Source of the DNA: an uncultured Litoreibacter sp.
GTDB lineage: Bacteria > Pseudomonadota > Alphaproteobacteria > Rhodobacterales > Rhodobacteraceae
Length of the DNA stretch: 64,000 bases
NCBI GenBank assembly: GCA_947494435.1
Contig: CANLUY010000001.1
Coordinates: 1,354,001 to 1,418,000 of the forward strand
Reading direction: 5' to 3'
Made by a program: the position numbers and the translations under genes. The notes below the pieces were generated by a model. It was not told the DNA's origin. It ran no database searches and was given only the letters and a program-made list of their open reading frames with translations. Below are positions 13,279 to 26,705 of the stretch, in pieces. Position 1 is the stretch's first letter; the number at the start of each line of letters is the position of its first letter.

Positions 13279-14466
13279 ATGAGCTATTTCGACAATCTGG
13301 AGACGCGGAGCGCTGATGCGCGTGAGGCGGATCAACTGGCCCAGCTACAAGCGCAGGTCCGGCGTGTCGAAACTGGGGAAGGGTCTTGCTTTCCCGATGG
13401 TGATGTTATGGCTCTATCGGACTTGGCTCAGTTCCCTGTTTTGCGGAAATCGGCATTGGTCGAATGGCAGGCAGCGCAACCACCCTTTGGTGGCGTGCGG
13501 ATGGGGGAATATACGCATGTCTTCCAATCACCTGGGCCCATTTACGAGCCGGGCGGTGTGTCGCATGACTGGTGGCGCTTTGGCCGGTTTTTGCATGCCG
13601 CCGGGATTGGATCGGGTGATATTGTTCAGAATTGCTTTGGATACCATCTAACGCCAGCGGGTATGATGTTTGAGAATGGCGCCCGCGCCGTTGGCGCCAG
13701 GATCCTTCCTGCTGGGACAGGTCAGACGGAACTGCAGGTGCGCGCGGCAGTAGATATTGGCTGCACGGCTTATGCGGGTACCCCCGACTATCTCAAAGTG
13801 ATCTTGGACAAAGCGGACGAGATGGGCGCGACACTGGCCTTCACCAAGGCGGCGGTTTCAGGCGGCGCGCTATTCCCCAGTCTGCGCGAGGCTTACGCCG
13901 CGCGCCGCATCTCCTGCCTACAGTGCTACGGTACAGCTGATCTGGGGCATATCGCGTATGAGAGCCCTGCGATGGAAGGTATGATCCTAGACGAAGGCGT
14001 GATTGTTGAGATCGTGATCCCCGGAACGGGTGATCCCGTGGCCGATGGCGAGGTGGGGGAGATCGTTGTGACATCCCTCAACCCGGACTATCCGCTTATA
14101 CGGTTTGCGACAGGCGATATGAGTGCCTTTATGAGCGGGACAAGCCCTTGTGGGCGGACGGGCCGCCGGATCAAAGGCTGGATGGGGCGTGCGGATCAGA
14201 CCACGAAGATCAAGGGCATGTTTGTCCGCCCGGAACAGGTTGCGGAACTTGTGAAGCGTCATGATGAGATTTCACGGGTGCGCGTTATCGCATCGCGTGA
14301 TGGCGATGCGGACCAGATGACGGTCCGTATCGAGGCGCCGGACGGGGGTGAGTACGCCGATAGTGTACAGTCCGTTCTCAAACTGCGGGGCCAAATAGAA
14401 GTGGTTGCACCCGGGACCCTTGCCGCGGATGGCGTGTTGATCGAAGATCAACGCAGCTACGACTAA
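13279..14466 (+). CDS. PaaK-like AMP-binding protein with degenerate P-loop
   Basis: 395 residues, related to phenylacetate-CoA ligase. The ATG at 13279 is preferred over 13243 because it has CAGAGG upstream and begins MSYFDNLETR like the family. It has QCYGTADLG (A5-like), a GDMSAF segment and a C-terminal PaaK domain with GRADQTTKIKGMFV. The usual Ser/Thr/Gly-rich ATP-binding loop (TSGTTGxPT) is replaced near residue 80 by a segment reading VFQSPGPIYEPGG. Catalysis may therefore be altered or lost. It is the last gene of the operon and its partner role with the first-gene synthetase is unknown. Confidence 0.8.
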   Translation: MSYFDNLETRSADAREADQLAQLQAQVRRVETGEGSCFPDGDVMALSDLAQFPVLRKSALVEWQAAQPPFGGVRMGEYTHVFQSPGPIYEPGGVSHDWWRFGRFLHAAGIGSGDIVQNCFGYHLTPAGMMFENGARAVGARILPAGTGQTELQVRAAVDIGCTAYAGTPDYLKVILDKADEMGATLAFTKAAVSGGALFPSLREAYAARRISCLQCYGTADLGHIAYESPAMEGMILDEGVIVEIVIPGTGDPVADGEVGEIVVTSLNPDYPLIRFATGDMSAFMSGTSPCGRTGRRIKGWMGRADQTTKIKGMFVRPEQVAELVKRHDEISRVRVIASRDGDADQMTVRIEAPDGGEYADSVQSVLKLRGQIEVVAPGTLAADGVLIEDQRSYD

Positions 14467-14512
14467 AGCGCGACACGAGCCTTTTTCTGCCAAAACCCCC
14501 AACATTTCATCA

Positions 14513-14718
14513 TTCTCACGGATTGTGAGCCGGTTCTCACGCGCGCGTTATGGCGTTGGCTGTTGCACACGACATCTGTGCGCAAGCGCACCAATCGTGG
14601 CATATTCTCACGCTCTGGTGAGTTCAAGTGAGCCAGAACCTGCCCCATATTCATCTCATCAAACGGCAACACGCCGACACACACTGCCGCAAGGCAACAC
14701 ACAAACTGGAGAAACAAC
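14513..14718 (+). promoter_or_regulatory. Promoter and leader of repeat-protein gene 1
   Basis: Four elements recur at the same distances before all three repeat-protein genes. Block A is TTCTCACGGATTGTGA with CTCACG following (14513-14540). Block B is TGTGCGCAAGCGCA (14577-14590). A -35-like TTCAAG (14623-14628) and CATATT (14646-14651) are 17 nt apart. The conserved leader begins at ATCAAACGGCAACACGCC. Blocks A and B start 64 bp apart; A to CATATT is 133 bp. Confidence 0.65.
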
Positions 14719-15012
14719 ATGAAAACCATCATCGCAACAACCGCCCTCGCCCTGTCCCTCGCTGCTCCTGCAGTCGCTGCTGACAAGTCGGTCCAACAGT
14801 TCTTCGCCCTGAGCAACGACTCCGCCGCCGAGCGCATCGTCCGCGACACAACAGGTGGCGATACAGCCGCAGCGTTGGAAAAATTCGTAGCAACAAAAGA
14901 CAGCGCCGCCGAACGTAACATCGTCATCGACCAAGACGCTCAAGTCAGCCGCGACGTCGTCTCGTTCTTCGCCCTGAGCAACGACTCCGCTGCCGAGCGC
15001 ATCGTCAAGTAA
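14719..15012 (+). CDS. Secreted repeat protein 1 (three ND-S-A-A-E-R motifs)
   Basis: 97 residues. A clear signal peptide ends AAPAVA at residue 20; the mature chain of about 77 residues has no cysteine. It carries three copies of a motif at about 27-residue spacing: FFALSNDSAAERIV (28-41), FVATKDSAAERNIV (56-69) and FFALSNDSAAERIV (83-96), the last almost at the C-terminus. Copies one and three are nearly identical in DNA (14800-14841 and 14965-15006). Codons are strongly biased to C-ending forms, suggesting high expression. Paralogues lie at 16539 and 25614. The family is not recognised; a secreted structural, signalling or precursor peptide are all possible. Confidence 0.8.
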   Translation: MKTIIATTALALSLAAPAVAADKSVQQFFALSNDSAAERIVRDTTGGDTAAALEKFVATKDSAAERNIVIDQDAQVSRDVVSFFALSNDSAAERIVK

Positions 15013-15050
15013 CTCTCAAAGGTTTTGCCTCCCACAAAACCCGAAGATCA

Positions 15051-15086
15051 ACGGCCTCCCCCAATCCCCCGGGGAGGCCGTTTTTT
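15051..15086 (+). terminator. Rho-independent terminator of repeat-protein gene 1
   Basis: The stem ACGGCCTCCCC (15051-15061) pairs with GGGGAGGCCGT (15071-15081), followed by a T-run to 15086. It lies just before the end of the convergent peptidase-like gene. Confidence 0.9.
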
Positions 15087-15091
15087 GTTGC

Positions 15092-16240
15092 CTAAAGCTC
15101 GAATAGTGCAGGGTCGTGGCGAGATAGCCTTTCGCAGCCATCAGATGTGACCAATACGGAATGACCAAGGCACATTGCGTGACCGGCGTCGCTGTCCATC
15201 AGAACCATATGCAGAAAAAATACCTGGCTTTCTTGCATAAGTAGGGGATTGCCCTCGTAAAACATCGGGAAATCGACCCAGATAGGGTTGTAGACAGCGC
15301 CCATCCCATAACCGCAGGCCTGTAAACGAGCATGCCCCATTCCAGCGGCATCAAAGACGGACGCATGCGCGCTATAGACATCTCCCATCGGCTTGTCTGG
15401 TTTGATGGCATCTTCGCACGCTTCAAGGGCATCCCGCGCCAAGCCATGCATCCGTTTTTCGCCCTCAGTTGCATGACCGACAATCAATGTTTGCATCATT
15501 GCGGCGTGGTAACGCGCGTAGGTGCCGGACCATTCCAGAGTGAGTTGGTCGGTGGCGTCGAGATGTCGGCGCCCTGAGAAATACCTGCACAAAAGAGCGC
15601 CTGGTCCTGAGCCGATAACAAACTCATTGCCCGCGTAATCCCCACCGCCCTTGAAGACGGCACCTTGCATGGCCGCAAGGATATCACCCTCAAACGCGCC
15701 AGCCTGCGTCGTCGCCAAAGCGGCATCAAACGCATCATCTGACAAAGCTGCTGCGCGGCGATGCATGTCGATCTCGGCCGGAGATTTGATACGGCGTAGG
15801 CCGCGGATAAGGTCTGAGGCGTCTTCAAGATCGCCCAAAGCGGCGCGGACCATGCGACCGTTGTAATCAGTGAGGCCTGCGGTTTGGCCCTCAATGCCGA
15901 TGCGTCCAGATACAAGACCCATCTTCGTAAGAAGCTCCTTAAGGTCATCGGCAGGTGTCGCGCCTTCGCGCTCATGCCAGATATGAATGTCGGCATCACG
16001 AAGCGTGGACGTATGTTGGGCTTGTCTTAAATCAGGCATTCGGGTCAGCAGGGCGAGCTGGCCGTCTTGGGTGAGGACCATGCATTGGAACATGGCAAAG
16101 CCGAAGGTGTCATAGCCGCTGATCCAATATTGGCTTTCTGGCGCGAACATGAGCAGAGCGTCGAGCTGGGCGTCCCTCAAAGCGTGAACAGCGGATGATT
16201 TGCGAGCGTTGAATTCAGCGTCACTAAAGTGGAGCGGCAT
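15092..16240 (-). CDS. M24-family creatinase/Xaa-Pro peptidase-like protein lacking metal ligands
   Basis: 382 residues: an N-terminal creatinase-type domain (about 1-135) and a C-terminal pitta-bread domain (about 150-370). In metal-dependent M24 enzymes two aspartates bind the metal (DxG, then a second Asp about 11 residues on). Here the segment near residue 225 reads LTLEWSGTYARYHAAMMQT, with Glu-Trp-Ser-Gly at the first site and Ala at the second. That pattern fits metal-independent members such as creatinase or ectoine-hydrolase-like proteins rather than a true Xaa-Pro peptidase. It lies on the minus strand between repeat-protein genes 1 and 2; whether they are linked is unknown. Confidence 0.8.
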   Translation of the reverse strand: MPLHFSDAEFNARKSSAVHALRDAQLDALLMFAPESQYWISGYDTFGFAMFQCMVLTQDGQLALLTRMPDLRQAQHTSTLRDADIHIWHEREGATPADDLKELLTKMGLVSGRIGIEGQTAGLTDYNGRMVRAALGDLEDASDLIRGLRRIKSPAEIDMHRRAAALSDDAFDAALATTQAGAFEGDILAAMQGAVFKGGGDYAGNEFVIGSGPGALLCRYFSGRRHLDATDQLTLEWSGTYARYHAAMMQTLIVGHATEGEKRMHGLARDALEACEDAIKPDKPMGDVYSAHASVFDAAGMGHARLQACGYGMGAVYNPIWVDFPMFYEGNPLLMQESQVFFLHMVLMDSDAGHAMCLGHSVLVTSDGCERLSRHDPALFEL

Positions 16241-16330
16241 GGGAAAGTCCTAAGAGGTTGGTCCATCAAAGCATAAAAGAGAATCGGCGAGGGGCGTGAT
16301 TCCATTCGCGACATTGGGCTGATTTCACTG

Positions 16331-16538
16331 TTTTCACGCTTTGTGATCGGGTTCTCACGCGGGCGTGACGTTATGGTCGGCTTTGAACTCCTTATGTGCG
16401 CAGGTGCACTTAAGTTTCGCAAATTTCTAATTTGGGTGCGTTGATGGCGCGGGTTGCAGGGCGCATATTAGGTCCATCAAACGGCAACACGCCGCACACA
16501 CAACGCCCCAGAGGCACACACTAAATTGGAGACCTAAA
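16331..16538 (+). promoter_or_regulatory. Promoter and leader of repeat-protein gene 2
   Basis: Block A TTTTCACGCTTTGTGA (16331-16346) continues to CTCACGCGGGCGTGA. Block B is TGTGCGCAGGTGCA (16395-16408). The -35 TTGATG (16441-16446) and -10 CATATT (16464-16469) are 17 nt apart, then the ATCAAACGGCAACACGCCG leader and TTGGAGACC before the ATG. Block spacings (64 and 133 bp) match gene 1 exactly. Confidence 0.7.
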
Positions 16539-16835
16539 ATGAAAACTGTAATCGCATCCGCCCTCGTCGCCCTGTCTTTCGCTGCACCTGCTGCGGCTGA
16601 CGTCTCAAACGTTCAAGCCTTCTTCGCACTGGGCAATGACAGCGCTGCTGAGCGCATCGTCCGCGACACATCAAATGGCGACATCTTCGCAGCACAAACT
16701 GTCGGCGCTTTGTCGAATGAATCCGCTGCCGAGCGCAAAGTCTTTGCAGAAGCTGATGTTGCAACACGCAACTCCAGCCTGTTGAGCTTCTTCGCACTAA
16801 GCAACGACTCGGCTGCTGAGCGCCACGCTAAATAA
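16539..16835 (+). CDS. Secreted repeat protein 2 (three ND-S-A-A-E-R motifs)
   Basis: 98 residues. A signal peptide ends APAAA at residue 20. The mature part has FFALGNDSAAERIV (28-41), a diverged central copy VGALSNESAAERKV (55-68) and FFALSNDSAAERHAK at the very C-terminus (84-98). No cysteine. It is closest to the copy at 25614, with the same MKTVxASALVALSFAAP start, and more distant from gene 1. It is preceded by the shared promoter/leader and followed by a GC-rich terminator, so it is transcribed alone. Function unknown. Confidence 0.8.
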   Translation: MKTVIASALVALSFAAPAAADVSNVQAFFALGNDSAAERIVRDTSNGDIFAAQTVGALSNESAAERKVFAEADVATRNSSLLSFFALSNDSAAERHAK

Positions 16836-16906
16836 TTGAAACAACCTAGATGGACCGAGCTTTTAGGTTGATCCATCTCCAGTGACCCAAAGTTTTTGGG
16901 TCGAGG

Positions 16907-16934
16907 CGGGCCCTGGTGATGCGGGGCCCGTTTT
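16907..16934 (+). terminator. Terminator of repeat-protein gene 2
   Basis: CGGGCCC (16907-16913) pairs with GGGCCCG (16924-16930), followed by TTTT. A second small hairpin, GACCCAAAG...GGGTC, lies just before it (16884-16902). Confidence 0.75.
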
Positions 16935-16958
16935 GGTTTCGTACCACTCATCACGCAT

Positions 16959-16988
16959 AAAAAAACCGCCCTCAACGGGGCGGTTTTT
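16959..16988 (-). terminator. Terminator downstream of rpmJ
   Basis: An A-rich stretch and CCGCC pair with GGCGG and a T-rich stretch around a short loop, so the hairpin has A/T tails on both sides. On the minus strand it lies about 20 bp after the rpmJ stop and can also act on the plus strand. Confidence 0.75.
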
Positions 16989-17009
16989 CCAATTGTATTC
17001 AGCGATCGT

Positions 17010-17135
17010 TTAGCCTTGGCGGGCCTTGAAACGAGGCTGTGTTTTGTTGATCACGTAGACGCGGCCCTTGCGGCGCACAATCCGGCAATCCCGGTGGCGC
17101 GACTTCAGGGAGCGAAGCGAGTTCTTGACCTTCAT
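17010..17135 (-). CDS. rpmJ: 50S ribosomal protein L36, 41-residue type
   Basis: A small component of the large ribosomal subunit. Translation of the minus strand gives a 41-residue basic protein starting [17 protein letters not shown] and ending [12 protein letters not shown], which is the longer, zinc-motif-poor L36 type of alphaproteobacteria and some gammaproteobacteria. A GGAGAACGGAC sequence precedes the ATG. It is alone, between a tRNA gene and a repeat-protein gene, as is usual when this L36 copy lies outside the ribosomal-protein operons. Confidence 0.95.
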
Positions 17136-17211
17136 GTCCGTTCTCCATTTCGTCCAGCGCGCTTGCGCCTTCTGGTTTCAGTTTGCCCCCGGGTGAGGGG
17201 CGAAATTTCGA

Positions 17212-17286
17212 TGGTGGGCACTACTAGGTTCGAACTAGTGACCCCTTCGATGTCAACGAAGTGCTCTACCACTGAGCTAAGCGCCC
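17212..17286 (-). tRNA. tRNA-Val (anticodon GAC)
   Basis: On the minus strand a 75-nt cloverleaf starts GGGCGCT and ends AGTGCCC-A-CCA, with CCA encoded. The D-arm has AGCTCAGTGGTAGAGC, the anticodon arm is CTTCG-TTGACAT-CGAAG with GAC at 17252-17254, and the T-arm contains GGTTCGAAC in the plus orientation. All stems pair. Confidence 0.95.
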
Positions 17287-17434
17287 ATCTAACCCCCAAT
17301 TTCCGGTCTGTCCACATCAAATAGGACGTGCCAAAGCACGGGAGGTCCGCGCTCTATAAAAGGAGTCGGAATGCGGTTCAAGGGCTTTCGATACTGCCAC
17401 AAAAAGGCCTATACTATATTGTAGAGGAGACGGG

Positions 17435-18295
17435 ATGCTGACGCGTGCTTTCAAATTGTCGCTGCCCACCGTGCAGACGACCAGTGTGATCTTCGCTAGC
17501 CCACATAGTGGGCGCGAATATCCACGTGCATTCCTCAGGAAATCAGTGCTGGATGAGCTTGCGATCCGGTCCTCCGAAGACGCATTTATGGATATGATCG
17601 TCAATAGTGCGCCGTCTTGTGGTGCGCCGCTTTTGCTGGCGCGTATGCCGCGCGCATTCCTCGATCTGAACAGATCTTGCGATGAAATGGACCCCGCTGT
17701 TGTTGAGGGCGTGCGTCAGGTTACCCATAATCCCCGTATCTCTAGCGGCTTGGGTGTGGTGCCGCGTGTTGTCTCGAACGGACGGGCCATCTATCGCGGT
17801 AAATTGAAAATGGCGGAAGCCCAAGCTCGATTGGCTGATTACTGGCACCCCTATCATAATCAACTGGCGAGCTTGGTCAGAGAGACGCGCCGTGACTTTG
17901 GCGAAGCAATTCTGATCGATTGCCACTCGATGCCCCATGAGGCTGTCGATGCGATTGCGCAAAAAGGGCTGCTCCGTCCTGAAGTTGTCTTAGGTGATCG
18001 GTTCGGAGCGTCGGCTGAAGGCGGAATTGTGGATCGGATCGAGCAGATATTTTTGGATGCAGGGCTTCGGGTCAGCCGCAATGCACCTTTTGCCGGTGCT
18101 TACACGACCCAGCAATATGGCCGGCCTTCTCAAAATCAACATGCTGTTCAGATTGAAATTGACCGTGCGCTTTATATGAACGAGCTGCGCGTGCGTCCGA
18201 ATGGAAATTTTGACAATTTCCGCGCCATCATGACCCGGATCATTGCGGAGCTGTCAGATATCGGACGTAAGAAAGTGTCCATGGCCGCCGAATAA
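17435..18295 (+). CDS. N-formylglutamate amidohydrolase family protein
   Basis: 286 residues. Conserved blocks include FASPHSGREYP (about 21-31), RMPRAFLDLNRSCDEMDP (about 69-86), ILIDCHSMPHEA (about 154) and NAPFAGAYTTQQYG (about 214). These histidine- and acid-containing blocks are the metal-site motifs of the N-formylglutamate amidohydrolase family, which hydrolyses N-formylglutamate or related N-acyl amino acids. No hut genes are next to it, so a role in histidine breakdown is not supported locally. It is convergent with dinB with one base between the stops. Confidence 0.85.
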   Translation: MLTRAFKLSLPTVQTTSVIFASPHSGREYPRAFLRKSVLDELAIRSSEDAFMDMIVNSAPSCGAPLLLARMPRAFLDLNRSCDEMDPAVVEGVRQVTHNPRISSGLGVVPRVVSNGRAIYRGKLKMAEAQARLADYWHPYHNQLASLVRETRRDFGEAILIDCHSMPHEAVDAIAQKGLLRPEVVLGDRFGASAEGGIVDRIEQIFLDAGLRVSRNAPFAGAYTTQQYGRPSQNQHAVQIEIDRALYMNELRVRPNGNFDNFRAIMTRIIAELSDIGRKKVSMAAE

Positions 18296-18296
18296 C

Positions 18297-19550
18297 TCAG
18301 CGCAACGCACGTCCTTTTACGATCGCATCGGGGCCAAATCTATTGCGGATCGCGTCGGTCGCACGCTCTGCATTGGTCCGTTTTGTCGAGTCTGGATCAA
18401 GCAAGTCACCTGAGCGGTCGGCATCTGTTTCCGGGGTAAGATCAGAAATCCCGACACCCAGCAGCCGATAGGGCCCTTTATGGCCGGTACTGTCGAACAG
18501 ATCACGCGCGGTCCGATAAATTTTGTCGGCAATCTGTGTCGCATCTCTCAGTGAATGACGGCGCGTGATGAGTTTGAAATCAGCCGTCTTCAGTTTGAGC
18601 GTCACAACACGACCTGCAATACCTTTAGCCTTGGCGCGATCAGACACTTTTTCCGACATCCGCCAGATGTGGCCGTCCAGAATGTCTATGTTGGCCGTGT
18701 CATCATGAAATGTCGTCTCATTGGAGATACCTTTTACCGGTGTGTGGGCGGAGACGCGACGCCTGTCCTGTCCTCGCGCCAAATGCCATAGTCGATCTCC
18801 CATCGAGCCAAATTTCGCACCAAGGTCTTTTCTGTCCCATCTCAGCAGATCAGAGAAGGTACGAATGCCAGCTTTCTCTAAGCTTTCGCGAGTGACTGCC
18901 CCAACCCCCCAGATCATCGAGACAGGTTTGTCTCGTAGGAACGCGTCGGTTTCTGCTTTGCCAATCACGGACAACCCCCGTGGTTTGTCGAGGTCGGAGG
19001 CCACTTTCGCGAGAAACTTGTTATGGCTGAGACCTACAGAGCCAGAGATACCCAGCTCGCTCTCCATTTGATTGACCAGTTTCGTCATCATGACGGCTGG
19101 GGGGTGGCCGTGCAGAGTCTCAGTGCCAGTAAGGTCGAGGAAGGCCTCGTCAAGTGAGAGGGGTTCGATTGATGGGGTCAGGTTTTCCATCATCTGCCGG
19201 ATTTGTTGTGAAACTTGGACATAAACGTCCATGCGTCCGCGCACGACGACCGCTTCAGGGCACAGCTTGAGCGCTTTGAACATTGGCATGGCGGAGCGGA
19301 CGCCTTTGATCCGAGCGATATAGCAGGCGGTTGAGACGACGCCGCGACGCCCGCCGCCGATGATGACGGGCTTGTCGCGGAGTTCAGGATTGTCGCGTTT
19401 TTCGACTGACGCGTAGAAGGCGTCGCAATCCATGTGGGCGATGGATAGGTCGAACAGTTCGGGGTGAGCGATCACGCGCGGCGACCTGCAGGACGGGCAG
19501 CGGGGGCCGTCTTGGAATTCGGTCAGACATGTGCGGCAGAGTGCGGGCAT
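18297..19550 (-). CDS. dinB: DNA polymerase IV with N-terminal zinc ribbon
   Basis: 417-residue Y-family translesion polymerase. The start at 19550 gives MPALCRTCLTEF: cysteines 5, 8, 18 and 21 form a CxxC...CxxC zinc ribbon ahead of the catalytic core. The core has the metal-binding HMDCDAFYASVE (about 41-52), SLDEAFLDL (about 138-146), the helix-hairpin-helix region WGVGAVTRESL and a little-finger domain ending KGRALR. It copies past lesions at low fidelity. No alphaproteobacterial LexA box (GTTC-N7-GTTC) is visible in the 82-bp gap to the next gene. Confidence 0.92.
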   Translation of the reverse strand: MPALCRTCLTEFQDGPRCPSCRSPRVIAHPELFDLSIAHMDCDAFYASVEKRDNPELRDKPVIIGGGRRGVVSTACYIARIKGVRSAMPMFKALKLCPEAVVVRGRMDVYVQVSQQIRQMMENLTPSIEPLSLDEAFLDLTGTETLHGHPPAVMMTKLVNQMESELGISGSVGLSHNKFLAKVASDLDKPRGLSVIGKAETDAFLRDKPVSMIWGVGAVTRESLEKAGIRTFSDLLRWDRKDLGAKFGSMGDRLWHLARGQDRRRVSAHTPVKGISNETTFHDDTANIDILDGHIWRMSEKVSDRAKAKGIAGRVVTLKLKTADFKLITRRHSLRDATQIADKIYRTARDLFDSTGHKGPYRLLGVGISDLTPETDADRSGDLLDPDSTKRTNAERATDAIRNRFGPDAIVKGRALR

Positions 19551-19632
19551 GGCTATGATTTTAGCACGCGCTTGGATGGGTGGACAGCGGGCTACTGACA
19601 GATATCGTGTGGAGAGATCGGGAGGGGATACC

Positions 19633-20499
19633 ATGAAGCTGGGTGTGATTTGTGACGGGATCAGTCGGGACCTGAGCCGTGCCGTCGACGTAATGGATGA
19701 GTTCGGGTTGGAGTATGCGGAACTTCAGTACGTTTGGGATACCGAGGTCGGGGATCACTCGCGGGCTGAGGTGATGGAGATGGATGCGCTGCTGAGGGAC
19801 CGAGGGAAGCCGGTGGCGTGTGTGTCGCGGCATCTCTTTGCGGGGATGACGGTGGCGAATGAACCCGGGGATGCGCTGCATCTGAAGCACATGGATGCGT
19901 TGAAGCGGGTGATTGGGGTGGCGGATGTTTTGGGATCGCCGCTGGTCAGGATCATGACGCCGAAGAAAGAGCAGATACTTTGGGGATCGCATGGCGCTGA
20001 GGTCTGGAATGTAGCGCAGGGGGCGTGGGAGAGGGTTCTGCCGTTGATCGCGCCGGCTGTGGAGGTGGCGCGGGATGCGGGGGTTCGGTTGGTTGTTGAG
20101 ACGGGCAACGGGACGATGGTGAACTCAAATTTCACGGCGCGGAAGTTGATTGATGAGCTGGATGCGAAGGATGTGCTGCAGGTATTGTGGGACCCGGCGA
20201 ATAATTGTTGGTGCCATGAGCGGGCGTATCCTGAGGGGTATGAACTGGTTCGGGACGGATATCTTGGGCATGTTCATATCAAGGATGTCGTGGCTGATAC
20301 GGCGCGGGCTTATCTGGAGGTGAAACCGCTGGGTGAGGGGCAGTTGGGGGCTTTGTTTGAGCCGATGGCTGAGGCGATGCGGGGGGATTTATATGACGGG
20401 GTGATCTCGTTCGAGAGTGTGTATCACCCCGGAAATCTTGATTTCGAGGCGGGATTTCGGGGGTCGATTTTGAGGTTCAAAGAGATTTTCGGAAGGTGA
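19633..20499 (+). CDS. Sugar phosphate isomerase/epimerase-type TIM-barrel protein
   Basis: 288 residues of the xylose-isomerase-like/AP-endonuclease 2 superfamily. The start at 19633 follows a GGGAGGGG Shine-Dalgarno. Barrel strands include KLGVICDGISR, VRLVVETGNGTM, VLQVLWDPANNCW and GHVHIKDV; the Glu, Asp and His residues at strand ends are the usual divalent-metal ligands. The substrate is unknown. It is divergent from dinB and followed by AT-rich DNA, so it marks the left edge of the island next door. Confidence 0.8.
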   Translation: MKLGVICDGISRDLSRAVDVMDEFGLEYAELQYVWDTEVGDHSRAEVMEMDALLRDRGKPVACVSRHLFAGMTVANEPGDALHLKHMDALKRVIGVADVLGSPLVRIMTPKKEQILWGSHGAEVWNVAQGAWERVLPLIAPAVEVARDAGVRLVVETGNGTMVNSNFTARKLIDELDAKDVLQVLWDPANNCWCHERAYPEGYELVRDGYLGHVHIKDVVADTARAYLEVKPLGEGQLGALFEPMAEAMRGDLYDGVISFESVYHPGNLDFEAGFRGSILRFKEIFGR

Positions 20500-20750
20500 T
20501 GGGGCCCCGGATGTGCCCTCCCCCGCATGCGGGGAATTGCATATCATACTGATTTTATGTGTTTTTCTTGTTTTTTAGGGATTTGTTAAGGTGGCGTTTT
20601 AGAGTTGTGTTCCCCAACGCTTCGGCTGATGCGAGGGTGTTGCCCTGATGAAAAAGATATACAGGCATTTGTATATATACTTGAAATCAAGATACTTAGT
20701 CTGGAGGTTTTTTCTTCTTTTTAATTACTTAAGGCATTTTGGAGTTCCTT
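20500..20750. other. Non-coding, AT-rich left flank of the TIGR04141 gene
   Basis: About 250 bp without a credible gene. It begins with the perfect palindrome CCCCGCATGCGGGG (20521-20534) and then becomes AT-rich. A segment with CTTCGGCTGAT and GGGTGTTGCCCTG (20610-20647) resembles one at 23002-23056 on the far side of the island. GGAG at 20741-20744 serves as Shine-Dalgarno for the next gene. Confidence 0.5.
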
Positions 20751-22487
20751 GTGGACAATCACGAAATCGAAATATCACAGATGTCATTCTTCTTAGCTAA
20801 GCCCGGAAATGATTTTGAAAGCGTAATAGTCGGAGCAAAGGAACTAAAAGGTAATTTAGCGTTCTCGCAGCATGATTTTAAGGTTGATGGTTCAAAATGC
20901 AGATTCATGTACTTCGAGACCAGTACAACAAAGAATAATCCTAAGTGGCTTGATTTTATCAACATTCAGATTGACAAAAACCAACCCAAGTTTAGCGGTA
21001 CTGCACGAAGTCCGAACGGAATTCTCCTGACGCATATAAATGACAGGGTATTGCTAACAACCTTTGGGCGAGCGTCAATCAGCTACGTTCTCCGACTGAA
21101 TTTAGAGAGTGATTTTGGAATTAGAACTTCGATGAACATGTGTGGGAATGAAGAAATTCGTCAAACCAAAAGTCAAAATAGTTCGATTACTACTACCCAG
21201 ATTGATCGCCAAGTAAGCAAGCCGTCAGATACATTCGCGTTTGGACTTAGCGAGTCAGAGGACCTTAAATATATTTCCGCTCGAATGAAGGGGAGCCCAA
21301 ATATCACGCTCCAAGGCAGAGACCGGCTTACGGTCAAAATTACTGAGAAGGACAGGCTAACTTGGGATAACATTATTACAAAATGTACGGAATTTCTGGT
21401 CGCCTATGAGAAAGAAGATTTCAAGAAGCTATTCCCAAACTACAAAAATTTTGCACCAGCGACAGAGGAGGATGTTAAAAAACTAGATGTAATCTTGATG
21501 GATGTGCTCAAAGCAAAGGATACTGAGAGGCTCCAATTGTGCATTCCGGAATTCGTACAGGATGATGACTTTTGTTTTACTTACACCAACAAGAAGAAGC
21601 AGGATAACATTGTTTACCCCCATTTAGATGTCGTTCAACTTTATCATCATCTCCAGTTGAGCAAACTAACTTCTAACTACCTAAAAAACAAAGATATCTT
21701 CGCCTACTCTTTGGAGGAGGACCAAGTGTTGTCTTATAAGAAATGGTCCATCTACAGCTGCTTGCTATTTGAAACGGAGCTTGATGATCGGTTTTTTATT
21801 TTGTCAGATGGTGCTTGGCGTGAAGTCGAAAAGGACTTCTACAAGTCGATAATAGAGTTCACCAACAACCAAATAACGGTAACTGATTGTGTTAGTAACT
21901 GCCTGAACATTGCGATTAATGATGATAAGAAAATGCAAAATAGAGAAGAAATTTTTAATAACGAAGCCTGCAATCGAAATCCTAGTTGGGTAAAGTTTGA
22001 CCAAGCCAGGCTCAGAATCGGCTCCGGTCGTTCGGACAAAGAGTTTTGTGATATTCTAGCTATGCTTGACGAGGAATTCGTTGATATCATTCATTGCAAG
22101 CCGCTAAAGAACTCTACCTCAATCAATTATCTGTTCTCTCAAGCTAAATTTTATGGTGATGCATTTTTGCAGGACGAAGAGTTCTTAAAGCAGATAAGAG
22201 CTCACATTGAGAAGTCTGAGTGCACTAAAAAGCAAAAATACCTCGATCATATTGGTGATGATATCGAAGCGATCTATGGTCAAGATTATCAGATTAGGTT
22301 GTGGTTATTATATGACAACGCCAAGTCAGCCCCGACCGTTGACGACATTCCACTCATAGCAAAATACGAATTGATGCTGATGCATGATCATCTACGGCGT
22401 GTTTCAAAATTTCATAAGGTCTTGCTTAGTTTTGTTCCTGTCAAACGCGTGAACTACCAGTCGGCAAAGAAACCAAAGGCTGCGTGA
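20751..22487 (+). CDS. TIGR04141/DUF6119-type sporadically distributed protein
   Basis: 578 residues from a GTG at 20751 (GGAG seven bases upstream); a TTG at 20739 is the alternative. It has no signal peptide or membrane helix. Resemblance to TIGR04141 rests on the long mixed architecture, FILSDGAWREVEKDFY (about 360, family form close to LSxGKWYEIDKDF) and CDILAM, VDIIHCKPL and STSINYLFSQ (about 435-460, family form close to FIHVKRxxxSSxLSHLFSQG). The family has a patchy distribution and is often suspected of a defence role. Codon use and base composition are strikingly AT-rich compared with neighbours, which points to horizontal transfer. No partner gene is adjacent. Biochemical function unknown. 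Confidence 0.75.
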   Translation: MDNHEIEISQMSFFLAKPGNDFESVIVGAKELKGNLAFSQHDFKVDGSKCRFMYFETSTTKNNPKWLDFINIQIDKNQPKFSGTARSPNGILLTHINDRVLLTTFGRASISYVLRLNLESDFGIRTSMNMCGNEEIRQTKSQNSSITTTQIDRQVSKPSDTFAFGLSESEDLKYISARMKGSPNITLQGRDRLTVKITEKDRLTWDNIITKCTEFLVAYEKEDFKKLFPNYKNFAPATEEDVKKLDVILMDVLKAKDTERLQLCIPEFVQDDDFCFTYTNKKKQDNIVYPHLDVVQLYHHLQLSKLTSNYLKNKDIFAYSLEEDQVLSYKKWSIYSCLLFETELDDRFFILSDGAWREVEKDFYKSIIEFTNNQITVTDCVSNCLNIAINDDKKMQNREEIFNNEACNRNPSWVKFDQARLRIGSGRSDKEFCDILAMLDEEFVDIIHCKPLKNSTSINYLFSQAKFYGDAFLQDEEFLKQIRAHIEKSECTKKQKYLDHIGDDIEAIYGQDYQIRLWLLYDNAKSAPTVDDIPLIAKYELMLMHDHLRRVSKFHKVLLSFVPVKRVNYQSAKKPKAA

Positions 22488-23082
22488 GTCGGGGCATACA
22501 GTCAAAAGGTTAGAATACAGCGGCCGACCCGGGAGGCATCTGAGGCGTGTGGGTGGCTGGATGTGGTCTCAGATTTTCCGGCGGTATTTCTATTTGAGAC
22601 GGTACAAAAGCGCTCTCCGGGGGAGCGTCTCGGGCATCTTTGATGCCCTGCAGGTAAGGGTCGGGCGCTGCCCGTCGGTTCCCTCCGGGCGGGAGATTGG
22701 TTCTGCTGGTTTGCAAGTGGTGATGGGTTTGGTGGGCGAACATTTTTGTACTGCACGCGTTAGATTGCTCCACCCTACAAGCTGAGAATTGAGCCGGGGC
22801 AATGCCTGACCGAGGGCTGGTGTTCCAGCGGTGGTGCGGTAGTGCTTTATGGTGGCATAGTACATTCCTCAGAAATTCTGTAGGCGAGGGGTGGAAAAAC
22901 ACCTGCCGTCAAACCGCAGGTTTGCCTTCGGCAAAACGGGGCGCCTCTCGGGCATCTGCGATGCCCTGCCGGTCATAGTCTGGCATTGGTCCGGCGCCTT
23001 CGGCTTGATTCCGGACCCAAGTGGGACATCGAATATCGGTTGGGGGTGATGCCCTGCTAAGCGGCAGTTGCTTCGCCCCCAC
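22488..23082. other. Palindrome-rich non-coding region (595 bp)
   Basis: No credible gene. It contains many small inverted repeats, including two copies of a CTCGGGCATC-NNN-GATGCCCTGC hairpin (around 22631-22652 and 22938-22959), CGCTCTCC/GGGGAGCG near 22611, a GTCCGG/CCGGAC pair around 22990-23018 and a GGGGG...CCCCC pair at 23042-23080. It sits at the right edge of the AT-rich island and may be remnant element DNA. Confidence 0.5.
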
Positions 23083-23925
23083 CTAATTCACTGGCGATAG
23101 TTTGTAGATGACCTCGTCCATGGCCATTTTGCACAGCATACCAGTCGCATCGGGGCCGGTGAGGATGAGGGCCCAGCCGTCGGGGCGGAGTTCTCGGCGA
23201 ATGTGCAGATTTTTGGCGAGCTCGGCGGAGCGGGTCGGGTTTTTGGGGCGTTTGAGCCGCGGCGCACCGGCGAGGATTTGTTCGGCCTCGTCAATGATGG
23301 GGGCGATCAGGGCGTAGGCTGTCTCCGTATCTTTGGGCTGGTGGCGGGCGATGGCCTCGAACGCCAAATCCTGCAGGCCCGCGCGTTGCAAGGTGGCGAG
23401 GCGGAGGAGTTTGCGCTCTGACAGGCCATGCGGTTCGCGCAAGACGCCGCTGAAATCCTGAACGACGGAGGCGAGCGTGCGCAGGCGGCTGGTTTTCTGT
23501 GTCGTGGCGAGCGGGTGAAGGGCGGCGATGGCCTCGTCCGGGGTGTTGAAGAGTTGGCGGTCCACGGCCTCCACGATGGTGCGGGCGCGGTCCCATGGGG
23601 AGAGTTGGGCGCGGATCTCATTTTCGGCAACCATGTCGGCCATGGCTTCCGAGATGGTGTCGGGCGTGCGGATGAAGGCGGGGATGGTGGCCCAGCGGTC
23701 ATTCATGTCGTGCAAGGCTTGATAGGCGGTGAGGCGGCGGTAGCCGGAGATCAGGGCGAAGGGGATGTCGCCCTCAATCGGGAAGACCTCGATGGGTTGG
23801 CGCAGGCCGGTTTTGGCGATGGAGTTGAGCAGCTCAGCCGCGGCGTCGGGCGTGTCGTGGGAGCGGTCACGGGGCAGGGCGTCTTTGTCGATGTCATGGA
23901 GCGGGAGATGGGTGATGTCGTGCAT
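23083..23925 (-). CDS. Orphan ParB/RepB-like DNA-binding protein
   Basis: 280 residues from the ATG at 23925; the frame stays open further upstream but that stretch is low-complexity and runs antisense into the SPFH gene. An N-terminal ParB/Srx-type domain has LRQPIEVFPI and ISGYRRLTAYQAL, then ENEIRAQLSPWDRA (helix-turn-helix entry region) and a long helical C-terminus. ParB proteins bind parS and hydrolyse CTP. No parA and no obvious parS is near, so this is more likely a plasmid-derived or regulatory ParB homologue than the chromosome partition protein. Confidence 0.75.
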   Translation of the reverse strand: MHDITHLPLHDIDKDALPRDRSHDTPDAAAELLNSIAKTGLRQPIEVFPIEGDIPFALISGYRRLTAYQALHDMNDRWATIPAFIRTPDTISEAMADMVAENEIRAQLSPWDRARTIVEAVDRQLFNTPDEAIAALHPLATTQKTSRLRTLASVVQDFSGVLREPHGLSERKLLRLATLQRAGLQDLAFEAIARHQPKDTETAYALIAPIIDEAEQILAGAPRLKRPKNPTRSAELAKNLHIRRELRPDGWALILTGPDATGMLCKMAMDEVIYKLSPVN

Positions 23926-24076
23926 GGGCGGCCTTGTCCTGTTGGGCTTCGGCGGCTTGGGTATCTGAGTGTGGTTAACGTGCCATGACGCGTGCGAACG
24001 GTGTGTTTCCAGCGGATTTTCCTTCAAAACCGGGGGGTGAGGCCCCATATGGAGGGGAAACACGAGAGGAATTGGT

Positions 24077-24970
24077 ATGGATATTGAGAGCTTTGTGACG
24101 GGATTTGTGTCCAATGGTGGCTGGCTGCTGCTGTTGTTTGTGCTGCTTGTGGTGGTGGTGCTGGCGAGTGTGCGGATCGTGCCGCAATCGCAGAAATACG
24201 TGGTGGAGCGGTTTGGCAAGCTGCGGTCGGTGCTGGGGCCGGGGATCAATCTGATCATGCCGTTCTTTGACCGTGTGGCGCACAAGATATCCATTCTGGA
24301 ACGGCAGTTGCCGACAAATTCGCAGGACGCGATCACGAGTGACAACGTGTTGGTGCAGGTGGAGACGTCGGTGTTTTACCGGATCATCGAGCCTGAGAAG
24401 ACGGTGTATCGTATCCGTGACATTGATGCGGCGATTGCGACGACGGTTGCGGGGATTGTGCGCTCCGAGATCGGGACGTTGGAATTGGACGAGGTACAGT
24501 CGAACAGGGCGCAGTTGATCACGCGGATTCAGGGCGCTTTGGAGAAGGTCGTGGATGACTGGGGGATCGAGGTCACGCGGGCCGAGATTTTGGACGTCAA
24601 TCTGGACGAGGCGACGCGGGCTGCGATGTTGCAGCAGTTGAATGCGGAGCGGGCGCGGCGGGCGCAGGTCACAGAAGCCGAAGGGTCGAAGCGGGCTGTG
24701 GAATTGAACGCGGATGCGGAGCTTTATGCGGCGGAGCAGACGGCGAAGGCGCGGCGGATCGCGGCGGATGCGGAGGCTTATGCAACGGGTGTCGTGGCGC
24801 AGGCGATTGCGGAGAACGGGCTTGAGGCGGCGCAGTATCAGGTGGCGCTGAAGCAAGTTGAGGCGCTGACGGCTGTGGGCTCTGGCGATGGCAAGCAGAC
24901 GATCTTGTTGCCGGCGCATGCTTTGGAGGCCTTCGGTGATGCGTTTGGATTACTGAAGGGGCGTAAGTGA
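24077..24970 (+). CDS. SPFH/Band 7 membrane protein (stomatin/QmcA type)
   Basis: 297 residues. An N-terminal transmembrane helix (about 12-32, Leu/Val rich) is followed by a Band 7 domain: VPQSQKYVVERFGKL, GPGINLIMPFFDRV, ERQLPTNSQDAIT and VETSVFYRI. A long Ala/Glu-rich coiled coil (about 180-260) and the conserved tail ILLPAHALEAFGD follow. Family members form large rings in membrane microdomains and act as scaffolds for proteases and transporters. It overlaps the NfeD gene by one base, the usual partner. Confidence 0.9.
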   Translation: MDIESFVTGFVSNGGWLLLLFVLLVVVVLASVRIVPQSQKYVVERFGKLRSVLGPGINLIMPFFDRVAHKISILERQLPTNSQDAITSDNVLVQVETSVFYRIIEPEKTVYRIRDIDAAIATTVAGIVRSEIGTLELDEVQSNRAQLITRIQGALEKVVDDWGIEVTRAEILDVNLDEATRAAMLQQLNAERARRAQVTEAEGSKRAVELNADAELYAAEQTAKARRIAADAEAYATGVVAQAIAENGLEAAQYQVALKQVEALTAVGSGDGKQTILLPAHALEAFGDAFGLLKGRK

Positions 24971-25257
24971 TGGGGTGGTCTGAGTACTGGGTTTGGTTTG
25001 CTGCCGCCATCGTGCTGGGCATTCTGGAGATACTTGCGCCGGGTTACATCTTGCTGGGCTTTGCGATTGCTGCCGGATTGATCGGGTTTGTGTTTTTGTT
25101 TGAGGGCGGGCTTGCGGGCTACCTTGCGGGCAGTTTGCCGGTGACGCTGGTGGTCTTTGCCGCTGTGGCTTTGGTGGTTTGGGTCGTCATGCGTAAACTG
25201 TTTGGCGCACGAGAAGGCTCGGTGAAAGTCTGGGAAAAAGACATCAACGACAACTGA
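24970..25257 (+). CDS. Short NfeD-family membrane protein
   Basis: 95 residues, starting at an ATG that overlaps the SPFH stop (TGATG). Two or three hydrophobic helices (WVWFAAAIVLGILEILAPGY, then LLGFAIAAGLIGFVFLF, then LVVFAAVALVVWVVM) match the membrane part of NfeD proteins. The C-terminal OB-fold of full-length NfeD is absent. SPFH and NfeD proteins typically work together in membrane quality control. A strong terminator follows. Confidence 0.85.
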   Translation: MGWSEYWVWFAAAIVLGILEILAPGYILLGFAIAAGLIGFVFLFEGGLAGYLAGSLPVTLVVFAAVALVVWVVMRKLFGAREGSVKVWEKDINDN

Positions 25258-25283
25258 TCCCTTCGCGGAGTTAAAAGAATTGA

Positions 25284-25319
25284 AAAACCCCCGGCGGTCT
25301 GACGACCGTCGGGGGTTTT
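25284..25319 (+). terminator. Terminator of the SPFH/NfeD operon
   Basis: A 16-bp perfect stem (25284-25299 with 25304-25319) starts AAAACCCCCGG, has loop TGAC and ends GGGGGTTTT. Confidence 0.92.
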
Positions 25320-25404
25320 GCGTGAGGCGTCTTTCGGGCCTCGAGTCGCTTCGACCAGCGACGGGATTGCATATTTTTGGCAGGCAGAAGTCTGTGTTTC
25401 ATCC

Positions 25405-25613
25405 GTTTCACAGGATGTGAGGGAAATCTCACGGGGGCGTGAGGGTGTGGGCCGAAGTGGAGATATGTATGTGCGCAAAAGCGCAGAAGTTTGATATTTT
25501 TCAGTAAAACGTGCATTGAGGGCGGTGCTCGCAGGATGCATATTCGTCTCATCAAACGGCAACACGCCGCACACACACCGCCCCATAGGCACACACAAAA
25601 TTGGAGACCTAAA
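25405..25613 (+). promoter_or_regulatory. Promoter and leader of repeat-protein gene 3
   Basis: Block A reads TTTCACAGGATGTGA followed by CTCACGGGGGCGTGA (25406-25442). Block B is TGTGCGCAAAAGCGCA (25470-25485). The -35 TTGAGG (25516-25521) and -10 CATATT (25539-25544) are 17 nt apart, then the ATCAAACGGCAACACGCCG leader. Block spacings (65 and 134 bp) match the other two copies although 9 kb separates them. Confidence 0.7.
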
Positions 25614-25910
25614 ATGAAAACTGTACTCGCATCCGCCCTCGTCGCCCTCTCTTTCGCTGCACCTGCTGCGGCTGACGTCTCAACCGCTCAAGCCTTCTTT
25701 GCGCTGGGCAACGACAGCGCTGCTGAGCGCATCGTCGGTAAAACATCAACCGGCGACGTATTTGCCGCTCAAGTGATCGGCGCTGCTGCAAATGAAAGCG
25801 CGCTGGAACAAAACGTTTCTGTTGAAGCCGATATTGCAACACGGAATGCAGCTGTCTTGAGCTTCTTCGCGCTGAGCAACGACTCCGCCGCAGAGCGTCA
25901 CGTAAAGTAA
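25614..25910 (+). CDS. Secreted repeat protein 3 (three ND-S-A-A-E-R motifs)
   Basis: 98 residues. The start at 25614 gives the MKTVLASALVALSFAAP signal peptide, cleaved after residue 20. FFALGNDSAAERIV (28-41) and FFALSNDSAAERHVK (84-98) are well conserved; the middle copy is IGAAANESALEQNV, the only copy of nine in the family without AAER. No cysteine. The 5' region is nearly identical to gene 2, implying recent duplication that included the promoter. Function unknown. Confidence 0.8.
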   Translation: MKTVLASALVALSFAAPAAADVSTAQAFFALGNDSAAERIVGKTSTGDVFAAQVIGAAANESALEQNVSVEADIATRNAAVLSFFALSNDSAAERHVK

Positions 25911-25944
25911 AATCCCAAGGTCGTTTCCTCCCTAGATGACCTCA

Positions 25945-25975
25945 AAGACGGGTCCGCTTCACGCGGGCCCGTCTT
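25945..25975. terminator. Bidirectional terminator between repeat-protein gene 3 and a membrane protein
   Basis: AAGACGGGTCCGC (25945-25957) pairs with GCGGGCCCGTCTT (25963-25975), with one G-T pair. It lies between convergent genes and covers the stop of the minus-strand gene. Confidence 0.8.
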
Positions 25976-26705
25976 CTTGTGTGAAGAGGGCTTTCATACC
26001 ACCGCTGAGATCCCCTTTGACGATCCATGAAATGCCAAAGGCGATGACACCCACGGTTTCCCACCAGAAGACCCAGTGCACCTCGGCCAGTGCCTCTTTT
26101 CGAGCCTCGCCCGCGAGGAAATAATAGCCGAGCATCACCATCGCCGTGAGGATCGCCGCGCCGCAGGCAACGTAGGTCTTGTTTTCAAGTGTTGACCAGT
26201 CGCGCTTTGCATCTGGGCCGCTGCTGTTTTTGGTAAAAAGAAATACGCAGATGATAAAGATGCAAACAAAAAACAGGATCGCGAAGAGGAAGTGGATCAC
26301 CGGAAAGCTGGTCCAATGGGCGACAAATCCAGTGGTGGGGCAGGTGAAGCCATTGGCCGCGTCCATTGTTCCGGGTGGGCAAGGTGCGTCCACGGGTTGC
26401 GTGGTGGGGAAGAGGGCCACGCCAATAGCGCCGATGCCTGCAAAGGTGGATATCCAGAAATCGGACAGAGTTTCCCCTTCGGCGCGGGGGTAGCCGAGAT
26501 AGGCGATCAAAAAGATGCCCACGGTGATTAACGAGCCTACGAAATAGTCGCCCATTGCGGTGTGATAGAACTCCGAGATTGAGGGCTGCATATCGCCGCC
26601 AAACAAGCGGGCTTGTGCATAGAGGGCGATAGGAAGGGCCAGACCAGTCAGACCAATCACCCGGCGCACGGCGCGAAAGGACAAGATGCGAGGATCAACT
26701 TGCAT
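25959..26705 (-). CDS. Multi-pass membrane protein, unknown function
   Basis: 248 residues with about six hydrophobic segments (near 15-30, 50-70, 85-100, 133-158, 180-197 and 210-227). A loop between the third and fourth carries CPPGTMDAANGFTCPTTG, whose two cysteines could form a disulfide outside the membrane. ISEFYHTAMGDYFVGSL near residue 43 looks like a conserved signature, but I cannot assign a family. It is transcribed alone and convergent with repeat-protein gene 3. Confidence 0.7.
   Translation of the reverse strand: MQVDPRILSFRAVRRVIGLTGLALPIALYAQARLFGGDMQPSISEFYHTAMGDYFVGSLITVGIFLIAYLGYPRAEGETLSDFWISTFAGIGAIGVALFPTTQPVDAPCPPGTMDAANGFTCPTTGFVAHWTSFPVIHFLFAILFFVCIFIICVFLFTKNSSGPDAKRDWSTLENKTYVACGAAILTAMVMLGYYFLAGEARKEALAEVHWVFWWETVGVIAFGISWIVKGDLSGGMKALFTQEDGPA

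What the first reader, a model, noticed from the sequence alone, without database searches (positions are those of the whole stretch)
14719..25910. Three-member family of secreted proteins built from an ND-S-A-A-E-R repeat
Genes at 14719, 16539 and 25614 encode 97-98-residue exported, cysteine-free proteins. Each carries three motif copies at about 27-29-residue spacing (consensus F-F-A-L-S/G-N-D-S-A-A-E-R), and the last copy ends at the C-terminus. Eight of nine copies keep S-A-A-E-R. I recognise no described family. Three copies in 11 kb with codon bias toward C-ending codons suggest an abundant secreted product: peptide precursor, surface or matrix protein, or signal.
Basis: partly seen in the sequence, partly recalled or inferred. 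Interest (0 to 1): 0.82.

Follow-up and report, generated by a model that had tools for sequence, protein, structure and literature searches.

The report
Promoter-linked small exported repeat proteins
Three small exported proteins built from a three-fold repeat belong to a ten-gene family in this marine bacterium; their unusual promoter also stands before differently built small exported proteins in related genera, and a sister branch of the family is paired with a protein-repair enzyme.

Summary
In detail: genes at 14719, 16539 and 25614 encode 97-98-aa exported, Cys-free proteins with three motif copies; 8 of 9 keep SAAER. But the family is larger: 10 members in this genome, matches in 20 of 21 genomes of the genus (Litoreibacter, by named relatives) and in 0 of 40 genomes of other genera. 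It is under purifying selection (dN/dS 0.03-0.23 in 14 of 16 pairs) and spreads as promoter-gene-terminator cassettes.

Two results go beyond the finding. (1) Seven of the ten share a stereotyped promoter. A model trained on this genus alone finds it at E<=1e-4 in 20 of 392 genomes of other Rhodobacteraceae genera, mostly before small exported Cys-free proteins whose mature sequences are not detectably related. (2) A Met-containing sister branch lies directly upstream of a Tat-exported MsrB: 21 pairs in 18 of 21 genomes; 0 of 31 canonical MsrB genes are so placed. No Pfam, NCBIfam, PHROGs, PADLOC or PDB match passed a cut-off.

Most likely: regulated, non-enzymatic envelope-stress proteins; the Met branch an oxidation sink or MsrB client. 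Function, regulator and TSS are inferred; AlphaFold gave no confident fold.

The parts
14719..15012 (+). family member A (97 aa), exported, motif copies at residues 33, 60, 88
16539..16835 (+). family member (98 aa), motif copies at residues 33, 60, 89
25614..25910 (+). family member (98 aa), motif copies at residues 33, 60, 89 (second copy degenerate)
14575..14671 (+). promoter of 14719: operator TGTGC-N6-GCAC at 14577-14591, -35-like 14623-14628 (TTCAAG), -10-like CATATT 14646-14651
   Evidence: R1 hit E 8.6e-20; -35/-10 labels are inferred
16393..16489 (+). promoter of 16539: operator 16395-16409, TTGATG 16441-16446, CATATT 16464-16469
   Evidence: R1 hit E 3.9e-18; labels inferred
25468..25564 (+). 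promoter of 25614: operator 25470-25484, TTGAGG 25516-25521, CATATT 25539-25544
   Evidence: R1 hit E 4.1e-20; labels inferred
14536..14551 (.). second palindrome, CTCACG-N4-CGTGAG type, 10 of 12 (a further 11 of 12 copy at 14607-14622)
16354..16369 (.). second palindrome, 11 of 12
25428..25443 (.). second palindrome, 12 of 12
14664..14676 (+). 5' UTR hairpin CGGC-AACAC-GCCG
   Evidence: fold
16482..16494 (+). 5' UTR hairpin CGGC-AACAC-GCCG
   Evidence: fold
25557..25569 (+). 5' UTR hairpin CGGC-AACAC-GCCG
   Evidence: fold
15053..15087 (+). terminator-like inverted repeat with T run after 14719 (seen by eye; loop too long for the scan, which does not list it)
   Evidence: sequence
14490..15091 (+). 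duplicated cassette: 602 aligned nt, 96% identical to the copy at G000:C2:818492 (-229 to +372 from the ATG)

Best explanation
The three genes are members of an undescribed family of small Sec-exported proteins, confined in sequence to the genus apart from one member elsewhere. Each mature chain of about 77 residues is three units of a short helix started by an S-[AP]-A-E capping box. I think they are non-enzymatic envelope-stress proteins: made on demand from a regulated promoter with two palindromic operators, exported, and working by number rather than catalysis, as a flexible helical buffer or client shield in the periplasm. The collinear Met-containing sister branch, with Met at motif positions where the window proteins have L, T/N or D/E, is placed in an operon with a Tat-exported MsrB, often beside a divergent AraC/Cupin_6 regulator; there it most likely acts as a methionine oxidation sink or as an MsrB client. 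The multi-copy Met-free branch (the window genes) would be a relative that kept the envelope role and acquired its own promoter. Shown: family, selection, cassette duplication, promoter conservation, MsrB adjacency. Inferred: co-transcription, location, stress regulation, helix-cap reading, buffer role.
For: Family and copy number. Purifying selection: (14 of 16 pairs 0.03-0.23). Fixed promoter geometry: operator to GTGCATTGAG 41 nt in 40 and 40 nt in 7 of 52, then CATATT at 28 nt in 44 of 52; R1 hits 7 of 10 members, next place E 0.037. Second palindrome: 62 sites against 7.8 in base shuffles, in 49 of 54 upstream regions. Met branch and MsrB: 21 of 38 branch-B/C hits >=100 bits have SelR within 1200 nt downstream on the same strand, in 18 of 21 genomes; 21 of 29 divergent SelR against 0 of 31 canonical SelR; SelR and Cupin_6 by Pfam; AraC neighbour in 8 of 12 paired loci. 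Low-confidence AlphaFold models start helices right after the S of the motif. No Cys in 51 Litoreibacter and 47 other-genus mature sequences.
Against: The window proteins have no Met in the mature chain and no MsrB neighbour, so the Met chemistry cannot be theirs. 17 of 38 branch-B/C hits >=100 bits are not paired with SelR; many of these lie by eye beside pntB, without MsrB. Branch B/C genes lack the R1 promoter. Two Met-branch proteins (L236, L247) contain Cys. Two of 16 dN/dS pairs are 0.40 and 0.50; the median pN/pS over 1487 pairs is 0.48. The general E. coli-type promoter scan finds no promoter in 14400-17100. Models are low confidence (pLDDT 49.2 and 47.7). No expression, localisation or stress data.
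Confidence: 0.4

Rival explanations
1. Peptide precursor: the exported protein is cut between repeats and releases two or three copies of a short peptide around (F)FALxNDSAAER that acts as a signal or pheromone.
For: Three near-identical copies, the last at the C-terminus, strong conservation of the motif (S and E in all 118 extracted copies; copies were extracted with a pattern that requires S and E, so this is partly by construction), several gene copies per genome.
Against: No conserved cleavage site between repeats is apparent in A1; linkers are also conserved and alignable; no receptor, protease or transporter gene travels with the cassettes (duplicated unit is one gene). Sister branch pairs with MsrB, not with a signalling gene.
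Confidence: 0.15
2. Structural surface or matrix protein: the repeats stack or polymerise into fibres or a coat, as in functional amyloids or small surface-layer proteins.
For: Repeat architecture, export, multi-copy, no Cys; lineage-specific sequence.
Against: No curli or other surface-protein Pfam match; helical rather than beta prediction (low confidence); no secretion or nucleation partner gene in the cassette.
Confidence: 0.15
3. Diversifying secreted effector or antimicrobial: a conserved promoter drives exported proteins that change quickly between genera because of an arms race.
For: Promoter conserved across genera while mature sequences are not detectably related; lineage-specific multi-copy expansions; gene-loss remnants.
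Against: Within the genus the protein is under purifying selection; no immunity gene in the cassette; PADLOC and PHROGs give nothing.
Confidence: 0.12
4. The conserved thing is the transcript leader (operator plus 5' hairpin, an RNA function), and the protein is incidental.
For: Leader more conserved than the protein between genera.
Against: Purifying selection on the coding frame; no Rfam match but a tRNA in 14000-26500.
Confidence: 0.04

Closest known systems
MrpX/BcrX methionine-rich peptide with MsrPQ (Azospira, Brucella; abstract and passages of PMC8315932 seen, Melnyk 2015 itself not read)
   Same: Met branch: small exported protein with several Met, genes next to a periplasmic-type methionine sulfoxide reductase, often a dedicated regulator nearby.
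   Different: Reductase is SelR/MsrB with a Tat signal, not MsrP; regulator is AraC/Cupin_6, not an ECF sigma; Met content is modest (3-8 per 78-86 residues after residue 20, the low end being the unpaired L098 and L066); window proteins have none.
RclR regulon of E. coli (passages of PMC7464077 seen)
   Same: AraC-family regulator beside genes for an envelope stress response (rclB is a periplasmic protein).
   Different: Membership of the Litoreibacter AraC in the RclR group was not tested; no rclA or rclC seen.
Hydrophilins / LEA proteins (definition recalled)
   Same: Small, repeat-built, Cys-free, poorly folding model.
   Different: Gly 2.6-5.1% and near-neutral GRAVY fail the recalled hydrophilin definition.
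Spy periplasmic chaperone
   Same: Small helical envelope protein; one other-genus protein gives a weak NCBIfam Spy match (E 0.002, 18.4 bits, cut-off 174).
   Different: Window proteins give no Spy match; match lies far below cut-off and overlaps the signal peptide.

Membership tests
MrpX-type Met peptide / Msr system | exported Met-rich peptide | tested here: not met
   Window proteins: exported, but no Met after the signal peptide. Met branch: 3-8 Met
MrpX-type Met peptide / Msr system | gene next to a periplasmic methionine sulfoxide reductase | tested here: not met
   Not for the window genes. For the Met branch yes, with SelR/MsrB: 21 pairs in 18 of 21 genomes
MrpX-type Met peptide / Msr system | induced by and protective against hypochlorite | not testable with these tools
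   needs an experiment
Hydrophilin / LEA | Gly above 6% and strong hydrophilicity (recalled) | tested here: not met
   Gly 2.6, 3.8, 5.1%; GRAVY -0.21, -0.16, +0.13
Spy/CpxP chaperone | match to the curated family model | tested here: not met
   No match for the three window proteins; 18.4 of 174 bits for one other-genus protein
Pfam DUF4889 | score above the gathering cut-off | tested here: not met
   P0001 20.2 bits, cut-off 29.7; no match for the other two
Promoter-defined class of Rhodobacteraceae small exported proteins (this report) | R1/R2 promoter upstream | tested here: met
   7 of 10 G000 members
Promoter-defined class of Rhodobacteraceae small exported proteins (this report) | mature sequence homologous across genera | tested here: inconclusive
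   Profile of mature Litoreibacter sequences finds only L119 and L067 (E 3e-5, 1e-4), both from G004 of the same genus, above shuffles; L119 in turn matches L131 of another genus (BLASTP E 1e-8)

The most novel reading that the evidence does not exclude
Rhodobacteraceae carry an undescribed class of small exported, Cys-free, often triple-repeat proteins that is defined by its promoter, not by its protein sequence: one regulator, conserved over at least 20 genera, drives products that have been replaced or remodelled genus by genus and multiplied within genomes as promoter-gene-terminator cassettes. L119 and L067, which join the NDSAAE module to the LGV-x-YTLAEL module of other genera, would be the visible intermediates.
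Probability: 0.3. Interest if true: 0.8.

Novelty: new variant of a known kind. Interest (0 to 1): 0.62.

Why it matters
It gives a name-less set of 'hypothetical proteins' in a major marine family a testable definition (a promoter), and offers two concrete handles on function: find the protein that binds TGTGC-N6-GCAC, and test the Met-branch protein as substrate of its MsrB. If the promoter-defined class holds, it is a case where regulation is conserved while the exported product is remodelled, which sequence-based family libraries miss. I chose 'new variant of a known kind' because the only functional lead resembles Met-peptide/Msr envelope protection; the window branch itself fits no known family.

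Tried and rejected
Signal-peptide hits: profile A1 in 394 Rhodobacteraceae genomes gave 30 genomes at E<=0.01, but many rows match positions 1 to 22-36 only; I count only L066 (positions 4-97, E 6.9e-20) as a full-length member in another genus, besides the partial matches of G004 (same genus) and G341. A regulon of other genes in G000: rejected; R1 finds no other place below E 0.037, the operator pattern alone is not enriched (9 matches, control 8), and the exact second palindrome occurs at 5 places, 4 of them family promoters; my first operator pattern had the wrong spacing and found none of the promoters. Loose ORF criterion: first I counted 50 of 55 R2 places with a small exported ORF, but 842 of 1831 random places pass it too, so I use the strict criterion: 41 of 55 against 66 of 1831 (in one search I replaced one ORF by its internal MK start, G371). 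By eye 51-52 of 55 qualify; clear failures are G274:C1:1245170 (no gene), G353:C11:656179 (39-aa remnant) and G299:C237 (contig end). Internal repeats in other genera: 27 of 46 tested proteins pass (<=2 of 200 shuffles), so 'repeat protein' holds for more than half, not all. R2 is partly circular: 22 of the 27 other-genus genomes it finds at E<=1e-4 gave it training sequences; R1 is not circular. R2 lost G428, which R1 found. Structure: two AlphaFold jobs, pLDDT 49.2 and 47.7, so no fold search was run. Plasmid collection: one query found nothing, another 9 records, 'hypothetical protein'. Literature: nine searches gave no paper in their listings that describes the family or promoter; only PMC8315932 and PMC7464077 were opened (abstract/passages), and most subscription papers are not held.
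Full report
Observation. The three genes exist as described and the repeats exceed chance. The window lies in genome G000 at C1:1354001-1418000. Relatives of the same genus are named Litoreibacter (28 of 29 loci; contig NZ_RCCE01000001.1 of L. meonggei has the length of G012:C1).

Family size. Ten members in G000: besides the window genes, C2:93740, C2:238261, C2:96363, C2:818492, C2:1351050, C1:1635068 and C1:411552. Among 61 genomes, 20 of the 21 of the genus match at E<=0.001 with 1-10 matches each (some rows are pieces of one gene, so these are not gene counts), and 0 of 40 genomes of other genera. With the profile A1 over 394 genomes of the family, one full-length member lies in another genus (G143, L066), beside a multicopper oxidase-like fragment, a cupredoxin-like exported protein and a transposase (by eye).

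Selection and duplication. NG86 dN/dS is 0.03-0.23 in 14 of 16 pairs; the other two are 0.40 (16539 against 14719) and 0.50 (a very close pair). The copies at 14719 and C2:818492 share 602 aligned nt at 96% (-229 to +372), those at C2:93740 and C2:238261 711 nt at 91% (-355 to +355): the unit is promoter, gene and terminator. I saw no mobile gene in the duplicated units.

Promoter. In 52 upstream regions with a recognisable operator, the distance from TGTGC to GTGCATTGAG is 41 nt in 40 and 40 nt in 7; the next step to CATATT is 28 nt in 44 of 52. This reads as TTGAGR-N17-CATATT with an operator centred near -74 of an inferred start in the conserved CTCATC; that reading is inference, and a plain sigma-70 consensus scan finds no promoter here, which would fit a promoter that needs an activator. 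A second palindrome, CTCACG-N4-CGTGAG, lies about 40 nt further upstream: at least one site in 49 of 54 regions, 62 sites against 7.8 in base shuffles. The leader folds a CGGC-AACAC-GCCG hairpin. A sequence model of 30 of these promoters (R1) finds 7 of the 10 members in G000 and nothing else below E 0.037.

Beyond the genus. R1, trained on this genus only, finds places at E<=1e-4 in 20 of the 392 genomes of other genera in the sample. Of these 20, 18 have by eye a small exported protein downstream, G412 a longer exported one, and G189 a 66-aa exported ORF that I count as doubtful. A second model R2 with 23 promoters of other genomes and the 3 of the window finds 27 of 392 at E<=1e-4, 22 of them in its training. 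Control: in 385 genomes drawn from the class, the only matches at E<=1e-4 are the seven of G000; the best outside the family is 5.5e-4. At 55 R2 places with DNA held, 41 have a small ORF with a signal-peptide-like start by a strict rule, against 66 of 1831 random places. Several genomes hold many copies (R2: G341 8, G353 7, G262 5, G156 5).

What follows the promoter elsewhere. The products are 50-171 aa with by-eye signal peptides and no Cys in 47 distinct mature sequences. 27 of 46 have internal repeats at <=2 of 200 shuffles; for example G156 (three IFAxIxAxDxxNNxG units), G079 (three LGxxxxxYSFAxLAAIKG units) and G149 (three LGxTS[PA]AE units). The mature profile of Litoreibacter does not find them above shuffles. 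The exception is L119/L067 of G004, a deep member of the genus, which join YFAQFNDSAAEQIV to LAASLGVxxxxYxLAEL; L119 matches L131 of another genus (BLASTP E 1e-8 for the single comparison). So shared promoter and build are shown; common descent of the products is only suggested.

Sister branch with MsrB. C1:1635062 and C1:411549 in G000 encode collinear homologues (A4) with Met at the motif positions (FAMSN, TSMGD in one of the two, GNMSAAER). Each lies directly upstream of a Tat-signal protein with a SelR (MsrB) domain (74.4 and 63.0 bits, cut-off 24.9). In 21 genomes of the genus, 38 places score >=100 bits with the A5 profile; 21 of them have SelR within 1200 nt downstream on the same strand, in 18 genomes. 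Of 60 SelR places, 29 are divergent (<80 bits) and 21 of these are paired; 31 are canonical and none is paired. An AraC homologue of the Cupin_6 regulator of L099 lies in 8 of 12 paired loci held. The 17 unpaired places include a third branch that by eye lies near pntB (L098, L244, L246). Branches B and C do not carry the R1 promoter.

Mechanism. I commit to envelope-stress proteins acting by mass, with odds 0.4. The S-[AP]-A-E motif has the form of a helix N-cap box (recalled), and both low-confidence models begin helices at it. The MsrB pairing makes methionine oxidation in the envelope the likely job of branch B. For the Met-free window branch the chemistry must differ; a flexible helical buffer or client shield is my inference. 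The comparison with MrpX/BcrX and MsrPQ rests on the abstract and passages of PMC8315932, that with RclR on passages of PMC7464077.

Known or not. Pfam, NCBIfam, PHROGs, PADLOC and PDB gave no match above a cut-off for the proteins tested. Nine literature searches listed no description (see Tried and rejected).

Noticed in passing
G000:C1:1318959 (L150): A full TGTGC-N6-GCAC operator stands just beyond the end of truB with no family gene after it; in G341 a copy of that genome's exported protein lies beside truB (L105). Looks like a lost copy.
   Followed up: partly
L202 (G353:C11:656179) and L196 (G274:C1:1245170): Promoters whose gene is reduced to a 39-aa signal-plus-tail remnant or is absent: birth and death of cassettes.
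   Followed up: partly
L239:1505-1822 and 1900-2520: A family-like acidic exported protein with two S-A-A-E copies lies upstream of an exported L,D-transpeptidase (YkuD).
   Followed up: no
L098:664-2750: Two exported proteins of about 300 aa, the first with a PilJ domain, precede the third-branch member and pntB.
   Followed up: no
L225 (G000:C1:1308764): The only exact CTCACG-N4-CGTGA outside family promoters stands before an exported Spondin_N/PEP-CTERM protein gene.
   Followed up: partly
window 20739-22487: 582-aa DUF6119 protein (300 bits), not in PADLOC, between ordinary metabolic genes.
   Followed up: partly
window 23083-24345, minus strand: 420-aa protein with a weak ParB_N match (27.8 bits, cut-off 26.3).
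   Followed up: no
L236:1595-1909 and L247:1622-1918: Met-branch relatives with His, Met and Cys added near the C-terminus, perhaps metal binding; L066 in G143 lies beside copper-type genes.
   Followed up: no
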